From Calothrix sp. NIES-3974 (lineage in GTDB: Bacteria; Cyanobacteriota; Cyanobacteriia; Cyanobacteriales; Nostocaceae): 64,000 nt of DNA. Shown in pieces: positions 2,410 through 40,650 of this stretch; positions within the stretch are counted from its first letter, which is position 1; the number at the start of each line of letters is the position of its first letter. The translations under genes and the position numbers were made by a program. The stretch is taken from NCBI RefSeq assembly GCF_002368395.1, contig NZ_AP018254.1, positions 2,046,001-2,110,000 on the forward strand. Direction: 5' to 3'. Under the pieces are notes generated by a model. It searched no databases, was not told where the DNA came from, and was given only the letters and a program-made list of their open reading frames with translations.

Positions 2410-2559
2410 TATCTGTACCTCGCAGATTCATGTTAGTCACATTCAAGCAAGTATCGGTGGGTATTCTGACTGACACAATTTTAGTCTAGAGATTAAATGA
2501 TTCATACTTCCCACACTGAAATATGTTTCCCTTTTGGTTGGTTGACAACTGACAGTTGG

Positions 2560-2790
2560 CTTTTAAGCATTAACCATTTTCACCAAAAGCTCACTTATTG
2601 ACTGTGTAAAAGTATAGCTGCTTTTACTTACCCTCAACGACAAAATTGGCTCACAGCTGCGGGACAGCGCCGGATTTACACCGAACTTTCCCCCTTACCT
2701 CGGATAGCTGCTCCCTATCCGAACCGATTTTTGCTACTATATCACCATCTAGGGATTTTGGCTGACCACCGTACAACAACGCAACAAAAA
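2560..2790 (-). promoter_or_regulatory. Cobalamin riboswitch upstream of cbiMN-QO
   Basis: Read on the minus strand, the segment contains the conserved cobalamin aptamer core: GGGGGAAAGTTCGGTGTAAA, then TCCGGCGCTGTCCCGC and AGCTGTGAG (plus positions about 2652-2693). A paired element with arms CGGATAG/CTATCCG lies just 5', and a GTAAAAG/CTTTTAC hairpin lies 3'. The core is a strong match to the B12-box consensus. The outer boundaries are approximate, and the 3' part does not match the textbook pattern well. It precedes cbiM by ~150 bp and is expected to shut off the cobalt importer when cobalamin is plentiful. Confidence 0.88.
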
Positions 2791-3313: not shown

Positions 3314-3867
3314 GATTAGAATATTGGGAGAAAGTAAAACACATAGACCCAGAAAACCTTGTGTTTATAGACGAAATGGGTGTTTTGCTTGGTTTGACTA
3401 GAACTCATGCTCGAAGCGATCGCGGGAGTAGAGCTTATGATTTTAAACCATATTACCGAGGTGCAAAAATAAGTGTAATTGGAGGAATTAGCTTCAAAAA
3501 AGTCTTAGCTGTGATGACTTTAAATGGCTCAATGAATGGAGAAGCTTATAAAGTTTTTGTAGAGCATTTTTTACTTCCACAATTATGGGTTGGTGCAGTC
3601 GTTGTAATGGATAATCTGCCAGCACATAAAGTCGAAGAGATTAAGCCTTTGATTGAATCTGTAGGAGCAAGTGTTCTTTATCTATCTCCTTATTCCCCTG
3701 AATTTAATCCAATTGAACATTGGTGGTCACAATTAAAAGCGTTCTTAAAACAGTTTTCTCCTAAAAGTGCATCTGTAGTTGATGGTTTAATTAAAATTGC
3801 ACTGACATTAGTTGATCCAAAGCATCTAAAAAATTGGTTTACTAATTGTTGCTACTGTACCTCATAA
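3205..3867 (+). CDS. IS630-type transposase, DDE catalytic frame (orfB)
   Basis: This frame carries the catalytic domain: first Asp in VFIDEMG, second in VVVMDNLPAHK, and Glu in FNPIEHWWSQLK. The catalytic part begins after the A-rich slippery region; the nominal start at 3205 is probably not used. Translation most likely enters by -1 frameshifting from the upstream frame. The C-terminus ends just inside the right inverted repeat, as is usual for these compact elements. The catalytic triad shows no damage. Confidence 0.9.
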   Translation: MGVCKCDVLCIAKTRINSKKKTLRSSQAKTERVQKLRLEYWEKVKHIDPENLVFIDEMGVLLGLTRTHARSDRGSRAYDFKPYYRGAKISVIGGISFKKVLAVMTLNGSMNGEAYKVFVEHFLLPQLWVGAVVVMDNLPAHKVEEIKPLIESVGASVLYLSPYSPEFNPIEHWWSQLKAFLKQFSPKSASVVDGLIKIALTLVDPKHLKNWFTNCCYCTS

Positions 3868-13358: not shown

Positions 13359-13478
13359 TTAGCTGATTTGTTGATTTGTAAAATATTTGGGGGATAATCC
13401 CCCAAACCCGCTATGGAAGGAAGAATTGATCTGTTTTCCCAAAACAGTTATTGATTTAACGTGAGTTCGATGAGTTAT

Positions 13479-13540
13479 AAAGCTTGAAACTCTTGTCCAG
13501 CATTATTCGTGTGAAATAAAAGTTTTTAAAAACCTCCTAG
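13479..13540 (+). repeat. Left ~61-bp direct repeat flanking small palindromic element
   Basis: Nearly identical to 13710-13770 (about four mismatches: t/c, c/g, t/g, a/g). It ends in CTCCTAG exactly where the element starts (TACAGGTTGGC). Probably a target duplication. Confidence 0.8.
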
Positions 13541-13709
13541 TACAGGTTGGCGGAAATAAACCGAGTATTAATTTAGTCACAACTTAATATATATCTAGTG
13601 ACTATGACTATGCTCTGCGTGGTCACTCAGTCAGCGAGGGCTACTGACTTCATTCACGAGGTCGGAACCTCGTAGGTTCCGCACCCACGCGGAGCATGGG
13701 TGCGAGGGA
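13541..13709 (+). mobile_element. Small palindromic element, copy A (TACAGGTTGGC...GCATGGGNGCG)
   Basis: This ~169-bp non-coding element begins TACAGGTTGGC then GAAATAAACCGAGTATTAA, has CTAGTGAC and CTCTGCGTGGTC in the middle, a foldable centre (GAGGTCGGAACCTCG), and ends CCACGCGGAGCATGGGTGCG. The same two termini border the copy at 39861-40003, in opposite orientation. In both places the element is bounded by direct repeats of about 61-68 bp. It contains no open frame, so any mobility must be supplied in trans. Confidence 0.75.
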
Positions 13710-13770
13710 AAAGCCTGAAACTCTTGTCCAGGATTATTCGTGGGAAATAGAAGTTTTTAAAAACCTCCTA
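13710..13770 (+). repeat. Right ~61-bp direct repeat flanking small palindromic element
   Basis: Second copy of 13479-13540. It ends in CCTCCTA followed by agtata. Its sequence has no relation to the direct repeats around the other element copy, so it is host-derived rather than part of the element. Confidence 0.8.
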
Positions 13771-13994
13771 AGTATATTGAGAATAAAATCAGTAAACCTG
13801 GAATCAGCCAGTTATTGACTTTGTTCTCAACTAATCAATGAGGTTACTTTAAACCTTAACTAACAAAATTATTGATTCGCAAGGATTGTAGTGTTTAAAA
13901 TCCGTCTAATTCACGTTGATTTAGGGTTTAGTTGTACTTTTTCAGAACTGAACTGAGCGCTTTTGTTGGGTGATGTTCCGAGCAGTCTGGTTCT

Positions 13995-36976: not shown

Positions 36977-39816
36977 AATATTTTCTGACGGCTTTTGCTA
37001 GGGGTGAGTCTTTGTACGCATCGGTAAAGGAAGCACGTACCCGTTTATTTGAGGAGTTAGATGGGGATTATCCCTGTGCTTCTTGGTTACCAATTCTGTT
37101 TCAAAATCCAGCCGCTACAGTTTTGAAATATCCCCGTTCTCAAAATTGGTCGCAGATTTTTGTCAAGGCAAATATGGTGTTGCTAATGTTAGCGATGGTG
37201 AGTAGTTTAACGTGGTTAATTGGGAGGGAAATTAGTTTTAGTAATAGGTTGAGTGCTGGAGAGAAAATACTGGATAATAAAATTGCTTCCCCAGAAAAAA
37301 TTGCTGGAATTAATCAGTTAAAAATCCAGAATTACGAGTTAGCGATTCAAAATTTTGAAAAGGCTTTAAAAAATCAGCCTGACGACCCGGAAACGTTAAT
37401 TTATTTAAATAATGCTCAGGCAGAAAAACAAAGTAGAAACAGCGCTCAGGAACCGGTACAAATTGGGTTAGCTGTACCAATTGGTTCCAGTATCAATGTA
37501 GCACGAGAAATCATGCGGGGTGTCGCTCAAGCGCAACAGGAAATCAATCGACAAGGTGGATTGAATGGTCGTTTATTAAAAGTAGTAATTGCCAACGATG
37601 ATAATAAAGCGGAAATTGCCGAAGAAATAGCCAGACGTTTTGTAAATCGACCAGATATTCAAGCAGTGGTGGGTCATAATAGTAGTGATGCTAGTGTTCC
37701 GGCTGCATATATTTATCAAAATCAAGGTTTGGTGATGATTTCACCAACTAGTAGTTCAACTCAGTTAACAGAAATACAGCGTCATCGAGGGGATAATTAC
37801 ATTTATCGCACAATTGTTAATCATGGTGCGATTATTAATAGATTAACGGATTATCTCAAATATTCAGGAATGGAGAGAATTGGTATTTGTCGAGATACAA
37901 AAGCCAAAGAACATTCCACCCTCAAAGCCTTTGAAGATTCAATTCGCAATCGTGGGTTAACAAAAGTCGATCTCCAGTGTGATTTTGGTTTAGAGAGATT
38001 CAATCCGGAAGATGCGATTCAAGATGCAACAAGTAAACAAGTTGATGCAATTTATCTTGATCCTCAAATTGATCGGTTGTATCGTGCCTTAAAATTAGCT
38101 GAGGTTAATCAAGGAAAATTTGTATTATTAGGTAACTCCAGTTTTCAAACCGTCTCAACACTCAATCATGGTCGATTTACCAAGGGGATGGTGTTAGCCG
38201 TGACTTGGGATTGGAGAGATTTAAAAACAACGGATTTTATGAAAAATGCCGAACAATTATGGCAAAATAAAAATGGGATTACTTGGCGAACGGCAAATGC
38301 ATTTGATGCGACAAAAGTGATTGCGATCGCCATGAGCAAAACTGCAAATATTAACCGTCAAAATATCCAAACTATTTTGGCTAATGGTTTTGTCTGGGAA
38401 GACGGTGCCACTGGTAAAATTGAATTTACATCCCAGGGCGATCGCATCAGCAATCATCCTGGTACCCTGTTACAGGTGCGACCTGACCCCAAGCATCGAG
38501 ATAGATACGATTTTGGCTTACACAGTGCGGTACAAAACCGTTTGAGTCAGGGTGAGCAGATATTGATGAAACCACCAGGGGAAAAACCAAATTCAGCCAA
38601 GCAAGGGGGGGTAGATGCGTATGCTGCGGGAAATTACAGTCAAGCGATCGCCTATTTTCAAAAAGCTCTCCACATGGACTCCCAAGACCCGGAAACTTGG
38701 ATTTATTTACAAAATTCCCGTGCTGCGGCTTTGAATGATACCCTAAAAATTGCCGTTGTTGTGCCGATTGGTTCTAATTTGAGTGTGAGCAGACAAATTT
38801 TGCAAGGGATTGCACAAGCTCAATTGGAAATTAATACTCAAGGAGGTATTAAGGGGAAATTATTACAAATAGTAATTGCCAATGACGATAATAAAGCCGA
38901 AATTGCTCAACAAATAGCCTATAATTTCAGTGAACAAAAACAAGAGATATTAGCAGTAATTGGTAGCAATGTCTCCGATGCTTCCGTTGCAGCTTGTAAA
39001 ATTTATCAGCAATCCCAAATCGTTAATATTTCCCCCACGAGTTTTTCCCTCGAATTATCTGGATGTGGCAATTACATCTTTCGGACTGCTCCCAATGTCC
39101 GGTTTATTGCGGATGTTTTATCTAAATATGCGGTACAAACAGCGAAAACCAAAAAATTAGCAATTTGTGTTGATGAACAAGCCAAAGACAACCAATCTTT
39201 TCGGGATGAATTTACCTTTCAAGTTCAAGAATACGGTGGTCAAATTATCAAGATATTCTGTGACTTTTCCCATCCCCAATTTCAACCGGATAAAATTATC
39301 CAAGATGCTAAAAATCAAGGAGCGCAAGGTATCTTACTCGCTCCCCACATAGACAGGATTGAACAAGCTTTAAAACTTGCTGCAAGCAATCAAGGTCAAC
39401 TCAAATTGTATGGAAGCACTTCCCTGTATACCCCGCAAACAATTCAACAGGGAAAAGCCAACATCAACGGATTAGTTGTCCCCGCAACATGGCATTTACA
39501 AGCACAGTTGAATCCAGAATTTAATCAAAAATCCCAAACCATGTGGGGTCAAAATAACGTCACCTGGAGAACCGCAACCAGTTATGATGCAGCGATGACA
39601 ATTATTCGCGGTTTACAAACAAGCAACACCCCCCAAGATTTACAAAAAACCCTGAGCGATCGCAACTTTTCTACTAAAGGAGCAACCGGAACTATCCAGT
39701 TTTTCCAATCCGGCGATCGCGATAACAAAAATAATGCCTTACTATTACAGGTTCAACCCACTTCCACCTCTGCTGATGGTTATGATTTTGTCCTAGTTTC
39801 CAAAAAGGGGTTTTAG
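36973..39816 (+). CDS. CHAT-domain receptor, C-terminal part: TM helix and duplicated TPR-PBP modules
   Basis: The frame first completes the CHAT domain (YFLTAFARGESLYASVKEAR, ASWLPILFQNPAA). One transmembrane helix follows (NMVLLMLAMVSSLTWLIG), then a TPR-like repeat (NYELAIQNFEKALKNQPDD) and a type-I periplasmic-binding-protein domain of the branched-chain amino-acid receptor type (VQIGLAVPIGSS..., SPTSSST, WRTANAFDATK). A second TPR (NYSQAIAYFQKALHMDSQD) and a second binding domain (IAVVVPIGSN..., SPTSFS, WRTATSYDAA) end the protein. Equivalent points of the modules are 429 codons apart. The likely layout is CHAT in the cytoplasm and ligand domains outside. Ligands are unknown. No natural start codon suits this frame (the first candidate is an internal TTG at 37012), so expression depends on frameshifting. 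Confidence 0.88.
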   Translation, partial: LEYFLTAFARGESLYASVKEARTRLFEELDGDYPCASWLPILFQNPAATVLKYPRSQNWSQIFVKANMVLLMLAMVSSLTWLIGREISFSNRLSAGEKILDNKIASPEKIAGINQLKIQNYELAIQNFEKALKNQPDDPETLIYLNNAQAEKQSRNSAQEPVQIGLAVPIGSSINVAREIMRGVAQAQQEINRQGGLNGRLLKVVIANDDNKAEIAEEIARRFVNRPDIQAVVGHNSSDASVPAAYIYQNQGLVMISPTSSSTQLTEIQRHRGDNYIYRTIVNHGAIINRLTDYLKYSGMERIGICRDTKAKEHSTLKAFEDSIRNRGLTKVDLQCDFGLERFNPEDAIQDATSKQVDAIYLDPQIDRLYRALKLAEVNQGKFVLLGNSSFQTVSTLNHGRFTKGMVLAVTWDWRDLKTTDFMKNAEQLWQNKNGITWRTANAFDATKVIAIAMSKTANINRQNIQTILANGFVWEDGATGKIEFTSQGDRISNHPGTLLQVRPDPKHRDRYDFGLHSAVQNRLSQGEQILMKPPGEKPNSAKQGGVDAYAAGNYSQAIAYFQKALHMDSQDPETWIYLQNSRAAALNDTLKIAVVVPIGSNLSVSRQILQGIAQAQLEINTQGGIKGKLLQIVIANDDNKAEIAQQIAYNFSEQKQEILAVIGSNVSDASVAACKIYQQSQIVNISPTSFSLELSGCGNYIFRTAPNVRFIADVLSKYAVQTAKTKKLAICVDEQAKDNQSFRDEFTFQVQEYGGQIIKIFCDFSHPQFQPDKIIQDAKNQGAQGILLAPHIDRIEQALKLAASNQGQLKLYGSTSLYTPQTIQQGKANINGLVVPATWHLQAQLNPEFNQKSQTMWGQNNVTWRTATSYDAAMTIIRGLQTSNTPQDLQKTLSDRNFSTKGATGTIQFFQSGDRDNKNNALLLQVQPTSTSADGYDFVLVSKKGF

Positions 39817-39860
39817 GTTGCATGAATCACCTGTTTTTGCTCCGCTATGGAGAAGAAATT
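39793..39860 (+). repeat. Left 68-bp direct repeat flanking element copy B
   Basis: Identical to 40004-40071 except for two bases (CGCTATGG against CGTTACGG). It spans the last codons of the receptor gene (LVSKKGF, stop) and the first codons of the permease gene, so it is host sequence that has been duplicated. Confidence 0.9.
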
Positions 39861-39911
39861 CGCTCCCATGCTCCGCGTGGGAGCAGAATCTGCGAGGCTC
39901 CTGCTTCGTGA
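39822..39911 (+). pseudogene. Truncated 5' copy of the permease gene
   Basis: ATG 39822 opens MNHLFLLRYGEEI, the same first 13 residues as the permease at 40033, then runs into the inserted element and stops at TGA 39911. It lies 5 bp after the receptor stop codon, which shows the original receptor-permease spacing before the insertion. Confidence 0.85.
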
Positions 39912-40003
39912 ATGAAGGCAGAGCCTTCAACTCACTAAGCGACCACGCGGAGCATGGTCACTAGATAAAAAGTTAATACTCGGTTTATTTCAGCCAACCT
40001 GTA
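39861..40003 (-). mobile_element. Small palindromic element, copy B (reverse orientation)
   Basis: The 143-bp element, read on the minus strand, begins TACAGGTTGGCTGAAATAAA, continues CCGAGTATTAA, has CTAGTGACCATGCTCCGCGT and ends CCACGCGGAGCATGGGAGCG. Ends and internal blocks match copy A at 13541-13709. It lies exactly between two 68-bp direct repeats. Its centre folds into nested hairpins (GAAGGCAGAGCCTTC). No coding capacity. Confidence 0.8.
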
Positions 40004-40071
40004 CTAGTTTCCAAAAAGGGGTTTTAGGTTGCATGAATCACCTGTTTTTGCTCCGTTACGGAGAAGAAATT
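40004..40071 (+). repeat. Right 68-bp direct repeat flanking element copy B
   Basis: Second copy of 39793-39860. It supplies the functional start of the permease gene and also carries a fossil of the receptor 3' end (CTAGTTTCC...TTTTAG). Confidence 0.9.
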
Positions 40072-40650
40072 TTACAACGCAGTTGGGAGCATATCCTGTT
40101 AGTGGGAATTGCGATCGCGATCGCCATTTGTCTTGGTGTCCCTTTAGGTGTTGCTGCTGTCCGCTACCCCTCTCTACGTCAAGGAATTCTCGGTTTAGCT
40201 AACCTGTTCCAGACTATCCCTAGTTTAGCCATGTTTGGTTTACTCATTCCCCTGGTAGGGATTGGTGTCACACCAGCAATTATCGCCTTGTTTTTGTATT
40301 CTTTATTGCCTATAATCCGGAATACTTATACTGGTATTACCGCCATCGAACCATCGATCCGAGAAGCAGGAAAAGCGATGGGAATGAACTCCAGACAATT
40401 ACTATGGCAAGTTGAACTTCCCCTCGCATTAGGTATCATTTTTGCTGGTATTCGCGTCGCCACGGTAATTGCGGTCGGAATTGCCACCGTTGGTGCTGCT
40501 ATTGGTGCTGGTGGTCTAGGAGAGTTAATTTTTCGCGGAATTGCAGCTCTCGATGACCAATTAATCCTTGCAGGTGCTGTTCCCGCAGGAATTATGGCAC
40601 TGATTGCCGACTTCGGAATTGGCTTAATTGCTGATTCTTTTCGCCGTTGA
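40033..40650 (+). CDS. Osmoprotectant/glycine betaine-type ABC permease (OpuCB/ProW-like)
   Basis: The 205-residue membrane protein has about five helices. FQTIPSLAMFGLLIPLVGIG and IIRNTYTGITAIEPSIREAG are family blocks, and the EAA coupling loop is REAGKAMGMNSRQLLWQVELPLALG, followed by VGAAIGAGGLGELIFRGI. It matches permeases of quaternary-amine importers. No ATPase or binding protein lies alongside. Before the insertion at 39861-40003 its start lay 5 bp after the CHAT receptor gene, so receptor and permease were one transcription unit. A functional link to the receptor's two binding-protein domains is suggested but unproven. Confidence 0.9.
   Translation: MNHLFLLRYGEEILQRSWEHILLVGIAIAIAICLGVPLGVAAVRYPSLRQGILGLANLFQTIPSLAMFGLLIPLVGIGVTPAIIALFLYSLLPIIRNTYTGITAIEPSIREAGKAMGMNSRQLLWQVELPLALGIIFAGIRVATVIAVGIATVGAAIGAGGLGELIFRGIAALDDQLILAGAVPAGIMALIADFGIGLIADSFRR

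What the first reader, a model, noticed from the sequence alone, without database searches (positions are those of the whole stretch)
39793..40071. 143-bp palindromic element bounded by 68-bp direct repeats of host sequence
Seen directly: 39793-39860 and 40004-40071 are identical at 66 of 68 positions and contain the end of the receptor gene plus the start of the permease gene. The element between them begins exactly at one repeat and ends exactly at the other. Classical transposons duplicate 2-14 bp; 61-68 bp is far outside that range. The duplication leaves both genes intact, separating a receptor and permease formerly 5 bp apart. Possible mechanisms, all inference: target-primed reverse transcription of a structured RNA with widely staggered nicks, or repair-coupled copying at the CTAG bordering one side. 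I know of no described bacterial non-autonomous element with such duplications.
Basis: partly seen in the sequence, partly recalled or inferred. Interest (0 to 1): 0.82.

Follow-up and report, generated by a model that had tools for sequence, protein, structure and literature searches.

The report
Broken mini-transposon with duplicated neighbouring DNA
A short parasitic DNA element in a cyanobacterium lost one of its ends and, in its place, acquired a second copy of the neighbouring host DNA, most likely by a copying slip at the element's own hairpin rather than by a new kind of jumping.

Summary
In detail: 39793-39860 and 40004-40071 match at 66 of 68 positions, and the sister genome G001 has the site empty with one copy. 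The reading as an element that makes 61-68 bp target duplications fails. The insert is a truncated copy (E40-187) of a ~185-bp MITE with at least 52 matches in this genome. Complete copies end at CTAG (31 of 42 on both sides), and five sister sites are cleanly empty with one CTAG or CCAG. None of 42 complete copies has a long flank repeat at its ends. In the main scan 7 of 25 independent truncated single copies do (22-151 bp); one more (L312) turned up among 30 further stretches. Truncations cluster at the two feet of the internal hairpin. Where one end is kept, the duplicated flank lies on that side, so mirror-image forms occur. Seven joins tested share 1-4 nt. An array shows slip-back from the same foot with the element in place. 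Best reading: template switching at the hairpin foot, then loss of the intact copy, or landing on an element-free sister chromosome. Two apparent before-and-after pairs failed an orthology test, so timing relative to insertion is open.

The parts
39793..39860 (+). first copy of the host flank (end of receptor gene, first codons of permease); stands where the missing left end of the element would be
   Evidence: direct repeat D1; single copy in G001; junctions
39860..40007 (+). truncated MITE copy, consensus positions E40-187; 100% identical over 148 nt to L001, L002 and L003
39866..39958 (+). internal hairpin (core), stem arms 39866-39880 / 39943-39957; the break here is at its left foot (E40)
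   Evidence: inverted repeat I2; DNA fold of the full element, z -6.0
39971..40003 (+). retained right terminal region of the element (E151-183, ends CCAACCTGTA)
40004..40007 (+). CTAG, the target tetranucleotide of ordinary insertions of this family, here also the start of the second flank copy
40004..40071 (+). second copy of the host flank, continuous with the permease gene
37012..39816 (+). periplasmic-binding-protein/receptor ORF, uses flank copy 1
40033..40650 (+). transport permease ORF, uses flank copy 2
13537..13713 (-). second truncated copy of the family in the window (E32-187), inside another repeat family and with a ~60-bp flanking repeat; confounded, not counted

Best explanation
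The insert belongs to a ~185-bp non-autonomous terminal-inverted-repeat element (MITE) that inserts at CTAG in the ordinary way and carries a strong internal hairpin. The 68-bp repeat is not made by ordinary insertion. It comes from an illegitimate template switch: a new DNA strand copied flank, CTAG, retained end and hairpin; at the far foot of the hairpin its 3' end left the template and re-paired, through 1-4 nt, some 20-150 bp back in the flank it had come from, and copying resumed. If the landing template was the same occupied chromosome, a tandem array results. If it was an element-free sister chromosome, or if the remaining intact copy was later removed at its CTAG ends, the result is an element lacking one end with the flank on both sides. 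Shown: family, CTAG ends, empty sister site, break points at the hairpin feet, mirror-image products, short microhomology, an array of the same geometry. Inferred: strand displacement by the nascent hairpin, the landing template, and the order of events.
For: (1) 52 matches in G000 with the window copy as query, 51 each in G000 and G001 with the full element; lower bounds, since 40 of 135-149 candidates were scored. 119 terminal-repeat matches against 0 for the reversed control pattern. (2) Clean empty sister sites with one CTAG (L003, L006, L007, L108) or CCAG (L010). (3) Flank repeats at a truncated end in 7 of 25 independent truncated single copies (L004 68 bp, L020 35, L106 46-61, L116 22, L124 39, L025 94, L026 151) and 0 of 39 complete single copies, Fisher p 0.0008; 1 of 863 at random sites. 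Five of the seven are flush on both sides. (4) Right truncations end at E148-151 in 11 of 14, left truncations start at E32-40 in 13 of 16 (windows chosen after seeing the data; L021 and L129 placed at E35 by reading). (5) Mirror-image products: L004 and L124 lost the left end, L020, L106 and L116 the right end. (6) Microhomology at seven joins: L100 4, L116 3, L106 2, L020 2, L004 1, L124 3, L021 3; random-sequence null mean 0.71. (7) Array L100: [CTAG-left end-core + the 21-bp left flank] three times, then an element with a right end. (8) L021: same foot, landing before the target, giving a deletion. (9) L312, from stretches not in the main scan: right end lost at the right foot, 52-bp repeat of the left flank.
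Against: At L106 and L124 the other genome has a complete element at the very same CTAG, which first looked like before-and-after evidence; but the copies are only 88.5% and 86% identical, have closer relatives elsewhere, and L096 equals L097, whereas four other shared pairs are mutual or best matches at 91-95% (L112/L091, L130/L105, L125/L094, L117/L026). Conversion or re-insertion must be assumed there. 18 of 25 truncated copies show no such repeat, and of 30 further stretches only L312 does. In L025 and L026 the repeat on one side stops at an extra block of 60 or ~105 bp, not at CTAG, and L026 lost both ends. L104 has a 29-bp repeat 129 bp away from its truncated end, unexplained. No nascent-hairpin step has been observed. 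G001 is a metagenome bin, so single sites may be misassembled.
Confidence: 0.7

Rival explanations
1. One-ended insertion: the transposase joins only one end at CTAG; the other end is truncated at the hairpin and joined by repair to a nick tens of bp away, so the long repeat is made during insertion.
For: Intact end exactly at CTAG in L004, L020, L106, L116 and L124; the element in L004 is identical to three complete copies, so it is recent; elements at L106 and L124 are not sequence orthologues of those in the sister genome.
Against: The L100 array shows the same foot and the same kind of slip-back, three times, with a right end still present in the last unit; in L025 and L026 the joined side is not at CTAG.
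Confidence: 0.17
2. A new kind of non-autonomous element that makes long target duplications by target-primed reverse transcription of a structured RNA.
For: Recurrent right end at E148-151 with variable left ends and long variable repeats resembles retrotransposition.
Against: Equally recurrent truncation at the opposite end (E32-40), mirror-image products, and inverted-repeat-ended complete copies at CTAG.
Confidence: 0.04
3. Recombination or conversion between different family copies, or between copies of the repeats in which the elements sit, brought the second flank copy in.
For: Some sites (L020, window 13451-13918) lie in flanks that are themselves repeated; copies seem to exchange sequence.
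Against: At L004 the duplicated 68 bp are gene sequence of the same locus.
Confidence: 0.09

Closest known systems
Prokaryotic MITEs, e.g. those of Anabaena sp. 90 (147 complete or partial copies, no similarity to the ISs of that genome; PMC3542288, passages read) and Nezha (seen only as a reference-list entry in PMC10969869)
   Same: Short, terminal inverted repeats, secondary structure, many copies, no transposase of its own, partner IS not found.
   Different: The truncated, flank-duplicated state with breaks at the hairpin feet is not in the passages I read.
Gap-filling / fork stalling and template switching at TIR transposons in metazoans (Pack-TIRs; PMC8277862, passages read)
   Same: Copying of neighbouring DNA at a TIR element after insertion, breaks inside the element, microhomology (median 2 bp where present).
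   Different: There captured sequence lies within the element; here one end is lost and the local flank is doubled; bacteria, not animals.
Insertion sequences with long target duplications, such as the IS1202 group (recalled, 24-29 bp; no call)
   Same: Direct repeats of host DNA longer than usual.
   Different: Here complete copies have a 4-bp (or inner TA) duplication only.

Membership tests
Prokaryotic MITE | Short element with terminal inverted repeats | tested here: met
   Ends CTAGTACCGCGCGGCGTAAATA and CTAGTACAGGTTGGCTGAAATA; 119 pattern matches, 0 in control; full length ~185 bp
Prokaryotic MITE | Short target-site duplication shown by empty sites | tested here: met
   Clean empty sites for L003, L006, L007, L010, L108; the rest of the sister sites fetched were not clean (see report). 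4 bp or inner TA not fully separable; L021 at ATAG favours 4 bp
Prokaryotic MITE | No coding capacity, many copies | tested here: met
   At least 52 matches in the genome; too short for a transposase
MITE of the IS5 or IS630 family | Autonomous partner with the same ends in the genome | tested here: not met
   No paired CTAGTAC ends in 30 loci examined of 36 PF01609 matches or in 30 loci of 30 PF13358 matches; the common IS630-like element, aligned at 12 loci, has other ends. Other transposase families were not searched
Element with long target-site duplication | Complete copies flanked by long direct repeats | tested here: not met
   0 of 42; best score 40 in L002, a 20-bp match whose far copy lies ~300 bp from the element, all others 22 or less; 0 of 11 complete ones in further stretches, L315 being L029 again
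Non-LTR-like retroelement (target-primed reverse transcription) | Fixed 3' end with variable 5' ends | tested here: not met
   Both ends are lost, each at a fixed hairpin foot
Template-switch product at a TIR transposon | Microhomology at joins and breaks inside the element | tested here: met
   1-4 nt at seven joins against null mean 0.71; clustering at the feet

The most novel reading that the evidence does not exclude
The hairpin acts as a built-in stop for DNA copying: when the strand is completed through the hairpin its 3' end is released at the foot and re-primes 20-150 bp back, so this MITE family repeatedly turns into flank-duplicated half-elements and tandem arrays, a bacterial hairpin-programmed source of local duplication.
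Probability: 0.3. Interest if true: 0.6.

Novelty: new variant of a known kind. Interest (0 to 1): 0.42.

Why it matters
It removes a tempting claim (a bacterial element with 61-68 bp target duplications) and replaces it with a testable one: hairpins inside common mini-transposons set where template switches occur and duplicate adjacent gene ends. In the window this separated two adjacent genes without breaking either, a route by which such elements can remodel operons.

Tried and rejected
Rejected: long target-site duplication (0 of 42 complete copies); retrotransposition (mirror-image truncation). An apparent 5' transduction in L025 (60 bp shared with L001) proved to be another small repeat, seen also beside L120. 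The before-and-after pairs L106/L120 and L124/L096 looked decisive and were downgraded when nearest-neighbour comparison showed the copies are not orthologous; a further locus pair, L126/L019, was not a best match either (90%, arrays). The window copy at 13537-13713 has the same look, but its junction coincides with the left end at which 26 of the 43 matches begin (another repeat family), and the whole composite 13451-13918 is absent from G001 with a 5-bp overlap, so it was not counted. Partner transposase searches with two Pfam families found none. Rfam at gathering threshold found only a cobalamin riboswitch in the window. Of 80 permease loci, 72 gave an upstream ORF; by eye only L165 (the sister) has this receptor end, so only the sister polarises the window site. 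Papers: the listings showed me no description of this rearrangement in a bacterial MITE; only a held open library was searched and three papers were opened, in passages.

Rows dropped before counts: from the 29 truncated single copies, L117 (orthologue of L026), L121 (orthologue of array L005), L101 and L139 (complete, with another right end, read). Dropping L126 and L131 likewise (orthologues of arrays L019 and L095) would give 7 of 23. L116 was added as repeat-bearing (22 bp, below the 25-bp limit). L104's 29-bp repeat, 129 bp away, was not counted. The end lists typed into held 12 right and 13 left ends; with L140, L142, L115 and L028 added they become 11 of 14 and 13 of 16; L144 stops at a contig edge and is counted on the left only. 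L024 and L027 repeat L023. The 42 complete copies include array members and orthologous pairs. Arrays (36 copies, 9 with repeats of 25 bp or more, 0 of 7 complete ones) and G010 copies (including L148 with a 32-bp repeat not flush) were left out. The 30 stretches were not in the main scan; scanned afterwards.

Full report
WHAT IS THERE. The direct repeat and the insert are real. The sister genome G001 has one copy of the 68 bp, no insert, and a receptor stop 5 bp before the permease start. Its contig has the length and content of CALJJQ010000035.1, an uncultured Calothrix bin, so the window is probably from a close relative of Calothrix (inference). Pfam: periplasmic binding protein / receptor, and transport permease.

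THE ELEMENT. The window insert has 52 matches in the 5.99-Mb genome, pieces of arrays included, with 40 of 149 candidates scored. Aligned flanks show that most close copies reach 37 bp further left: the complete element is about 185 bp; consensus E is taken from locus L003. Its ends are imperfect inverted repeats beginning CTAGTAC; a pattern for them has 119 matches against 0 for the reversed control. Inside lies a hairpin (DNA fold z -6.0). Of 42 complete copies, array members and orthologous pairs included, 31 have CTAG on both sides; 11 deviate on a side (L002, L005, L094, L099, L105, L107, L114, L123, L125, L130, L134).

SISTER SITES OF COMPLETE COPIES. Clean empty site with one CTAG: L003, L006, L007, L108; with CCAG: L010. 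L101, complete with another right end, also has an empty sister site (8-bp overlap). L009: no element in the sister, but a larger block of ~290 bp is missing there. L110 and L113: no element in the sister, site not cleanly alignable. L001 and L107: one flank aligned only. L120: another copy at the same CTAG (L106). L139: an element at the sister locus too. This is an ordinary MITE with a short duplication. No partner transposase was found among PF01609 loci (30 of 36 matches examined) or PF13358 loci (30 of 30).

THE WINDOW COPY IS TRUNCATED. It is E40-187. The retained right end sits at a CTAG that exists in the empty site. The missing left end is replaced by the right flank, copied from CTAG outward for 68 bp.

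THE REPEAT BELONGS TO TRUNCATED COPIES. Scan of single copies in both genomes: 37 complete, none with a repeat of 25 bp or more at an end; 29 truncated, 7 with one. After removing orthologues and two misclassified copies and adding L116 (22 bp) the count is 7 of 25 against 0 of 39 (Fisher p 0.0008). Random virtual sites gave 1 of 863 (12 of 863 for repeats anywhere in the flanks). Alignment of the flanks of 42 complete copies gave 22 or less except L002 (40), a 20-bp match whose far copy lies ~300 bp from the element; L116 itself scores only 39, but is flush on both sides. In 30 further stretches with divergent copies, fetched and scanned, one more has a repeat (L312, 52 bp); 11 complete by alignment have none (L315 is L029 again).

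GEOMETRY. Left end lost, right flank copied: L004 (window) and L124. Right end lost, left flank copied up to CTAG: L020, L106, L116; L312 has the same form, with its hairpin collapsed. L025 follows the plan, but the flank copy on one side stops at a 60-bp block of other sequence; L026 lost both ends and has a block of about 105 bp. In G001 the L020 site is empty with one flank copy; the L025 site has one flank copy and another insertion; L026 has an orthologue with the same repeat, L117. Break points: E148-151 in 11 of 14 right truncations, E32-40 in 13 of 16 left ones (windows chosen after seeing the data). Microhomology at seven joins is 4, 3, 2, 2, 1, 3, 3 nt (L100, L116, L106, L020, L004, L124, L021); a random-sequence null gives 0.71. 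L025, L026 and L312 were not computed. L021 is the deletion counterpart: same foot, landing before the target.

ARRAYS. In L100 the unit [left end-core] is followed by the 21 bp that precede the first CTAG, three times, and the last unit has a right end. The sister has two units with a 21-bp gap at that site. L095 has between two cores 46 bp that resemble its left flank (80%). Slip-back from the same foot therefore happens with an element in place. Removing the last complete element from such an array at its CTAG ends, or landing on an element-free sister chromosome (cyanobacteria are often polyploid, general knowledge), gives the window structure.

WHAT ARGUES AGAINST. At L106 and L124 the other genome has a complete element at the same CTAG. 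I first took this as the same copy before and after, but L106 is 88.5% identical to L120 and 97% to another copy of its own genome, and L124 is 86% identical to L096, which equals a third copy. Pairs recognised by their flanks are mutual or best matches at 91-95% (L112/L091, L130/L105, L125/L094), as is L026/L117. Conversion could explain this; one-ended insertion remains possible. Most truncated copies (18 of 25) have no such repeat; they may be deletions, as L021 is.

KNOWN KINDS. Cyanobacterial MITEs without a matching IS are reported for Anabaena sp. 90 (PMC3542288, passages). Template switching at TIR transposons with microhomology, after insertion, is reported for animals (PMC8277862, passages). 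I found no paper on hairpin-foot flank duplication in a bacterial MITE in the listings, from an incomplete library.

VERDICT. Observation confirmed; long target duplication rejected; repair or replication slip at the hairpin foot favoured (0.7), with the order of events and the landing template open.

Noticed in passing
window 13451-13918: A 468-bp composite absent from G001: a truncated copy of the same MITE (13537-13713, minus strand) inside another repeat family; 26 of 43 matches in G001 begin at that family's left end.
   Followed up: partly
L001, L025 and L120, beside or near the left CTAG: A separate ~60-bp dispersed repeat (CTAGAATAATCAACG ... GTAAACGATA) sits against or near this MITE at three loci.
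   Followed up: no
L100 (G000:3510876-3511528), L023, L102, L127: Tandem arrays of the core hairpin, some with short CATGGTCACTAGAT units, a possible route from MITE to minisatellite.
   Followed up: partly
L020, L111 and L292: The MITE sits at CTAG after the same flank (..TTTGACAAACCA or TTGACAAACCA) at three loci in two genomes, suggesting a preferred repeat as target.
   Followed up: no
window about 3358-3753 (G000:2049358-2049753): One of 22 equally scoring PF13358 matches of an IS630-like transposase; the 12 loci aligned share a ~1020-bp element with ends TACAGCA, a recently amplified IS whose ends are not those of the MITE.
   Followed up: yes
window 2439-2743, minus strand: Cobalamin riboswitch (RF00174, 49.3 bits).
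   Followed up: no
L071, L077, L081 (G007); L075, L085 (G010): Small elements with the same CTAGTAC ends but other interiors occur in other genera of the family.
   Followed up: partly
L020, right flank copy: The new flank copy differs from the old copy and from the sister genome at three of 35 positions, while the old copy equals the sister; possibly error-prone copying.
   Followed up: no
L292, L293, L298 and L312: Short ~60-108 bp forms in which the hairpin has collapsed between its two arms, the ends being kept in the first three.
   Followed up: no
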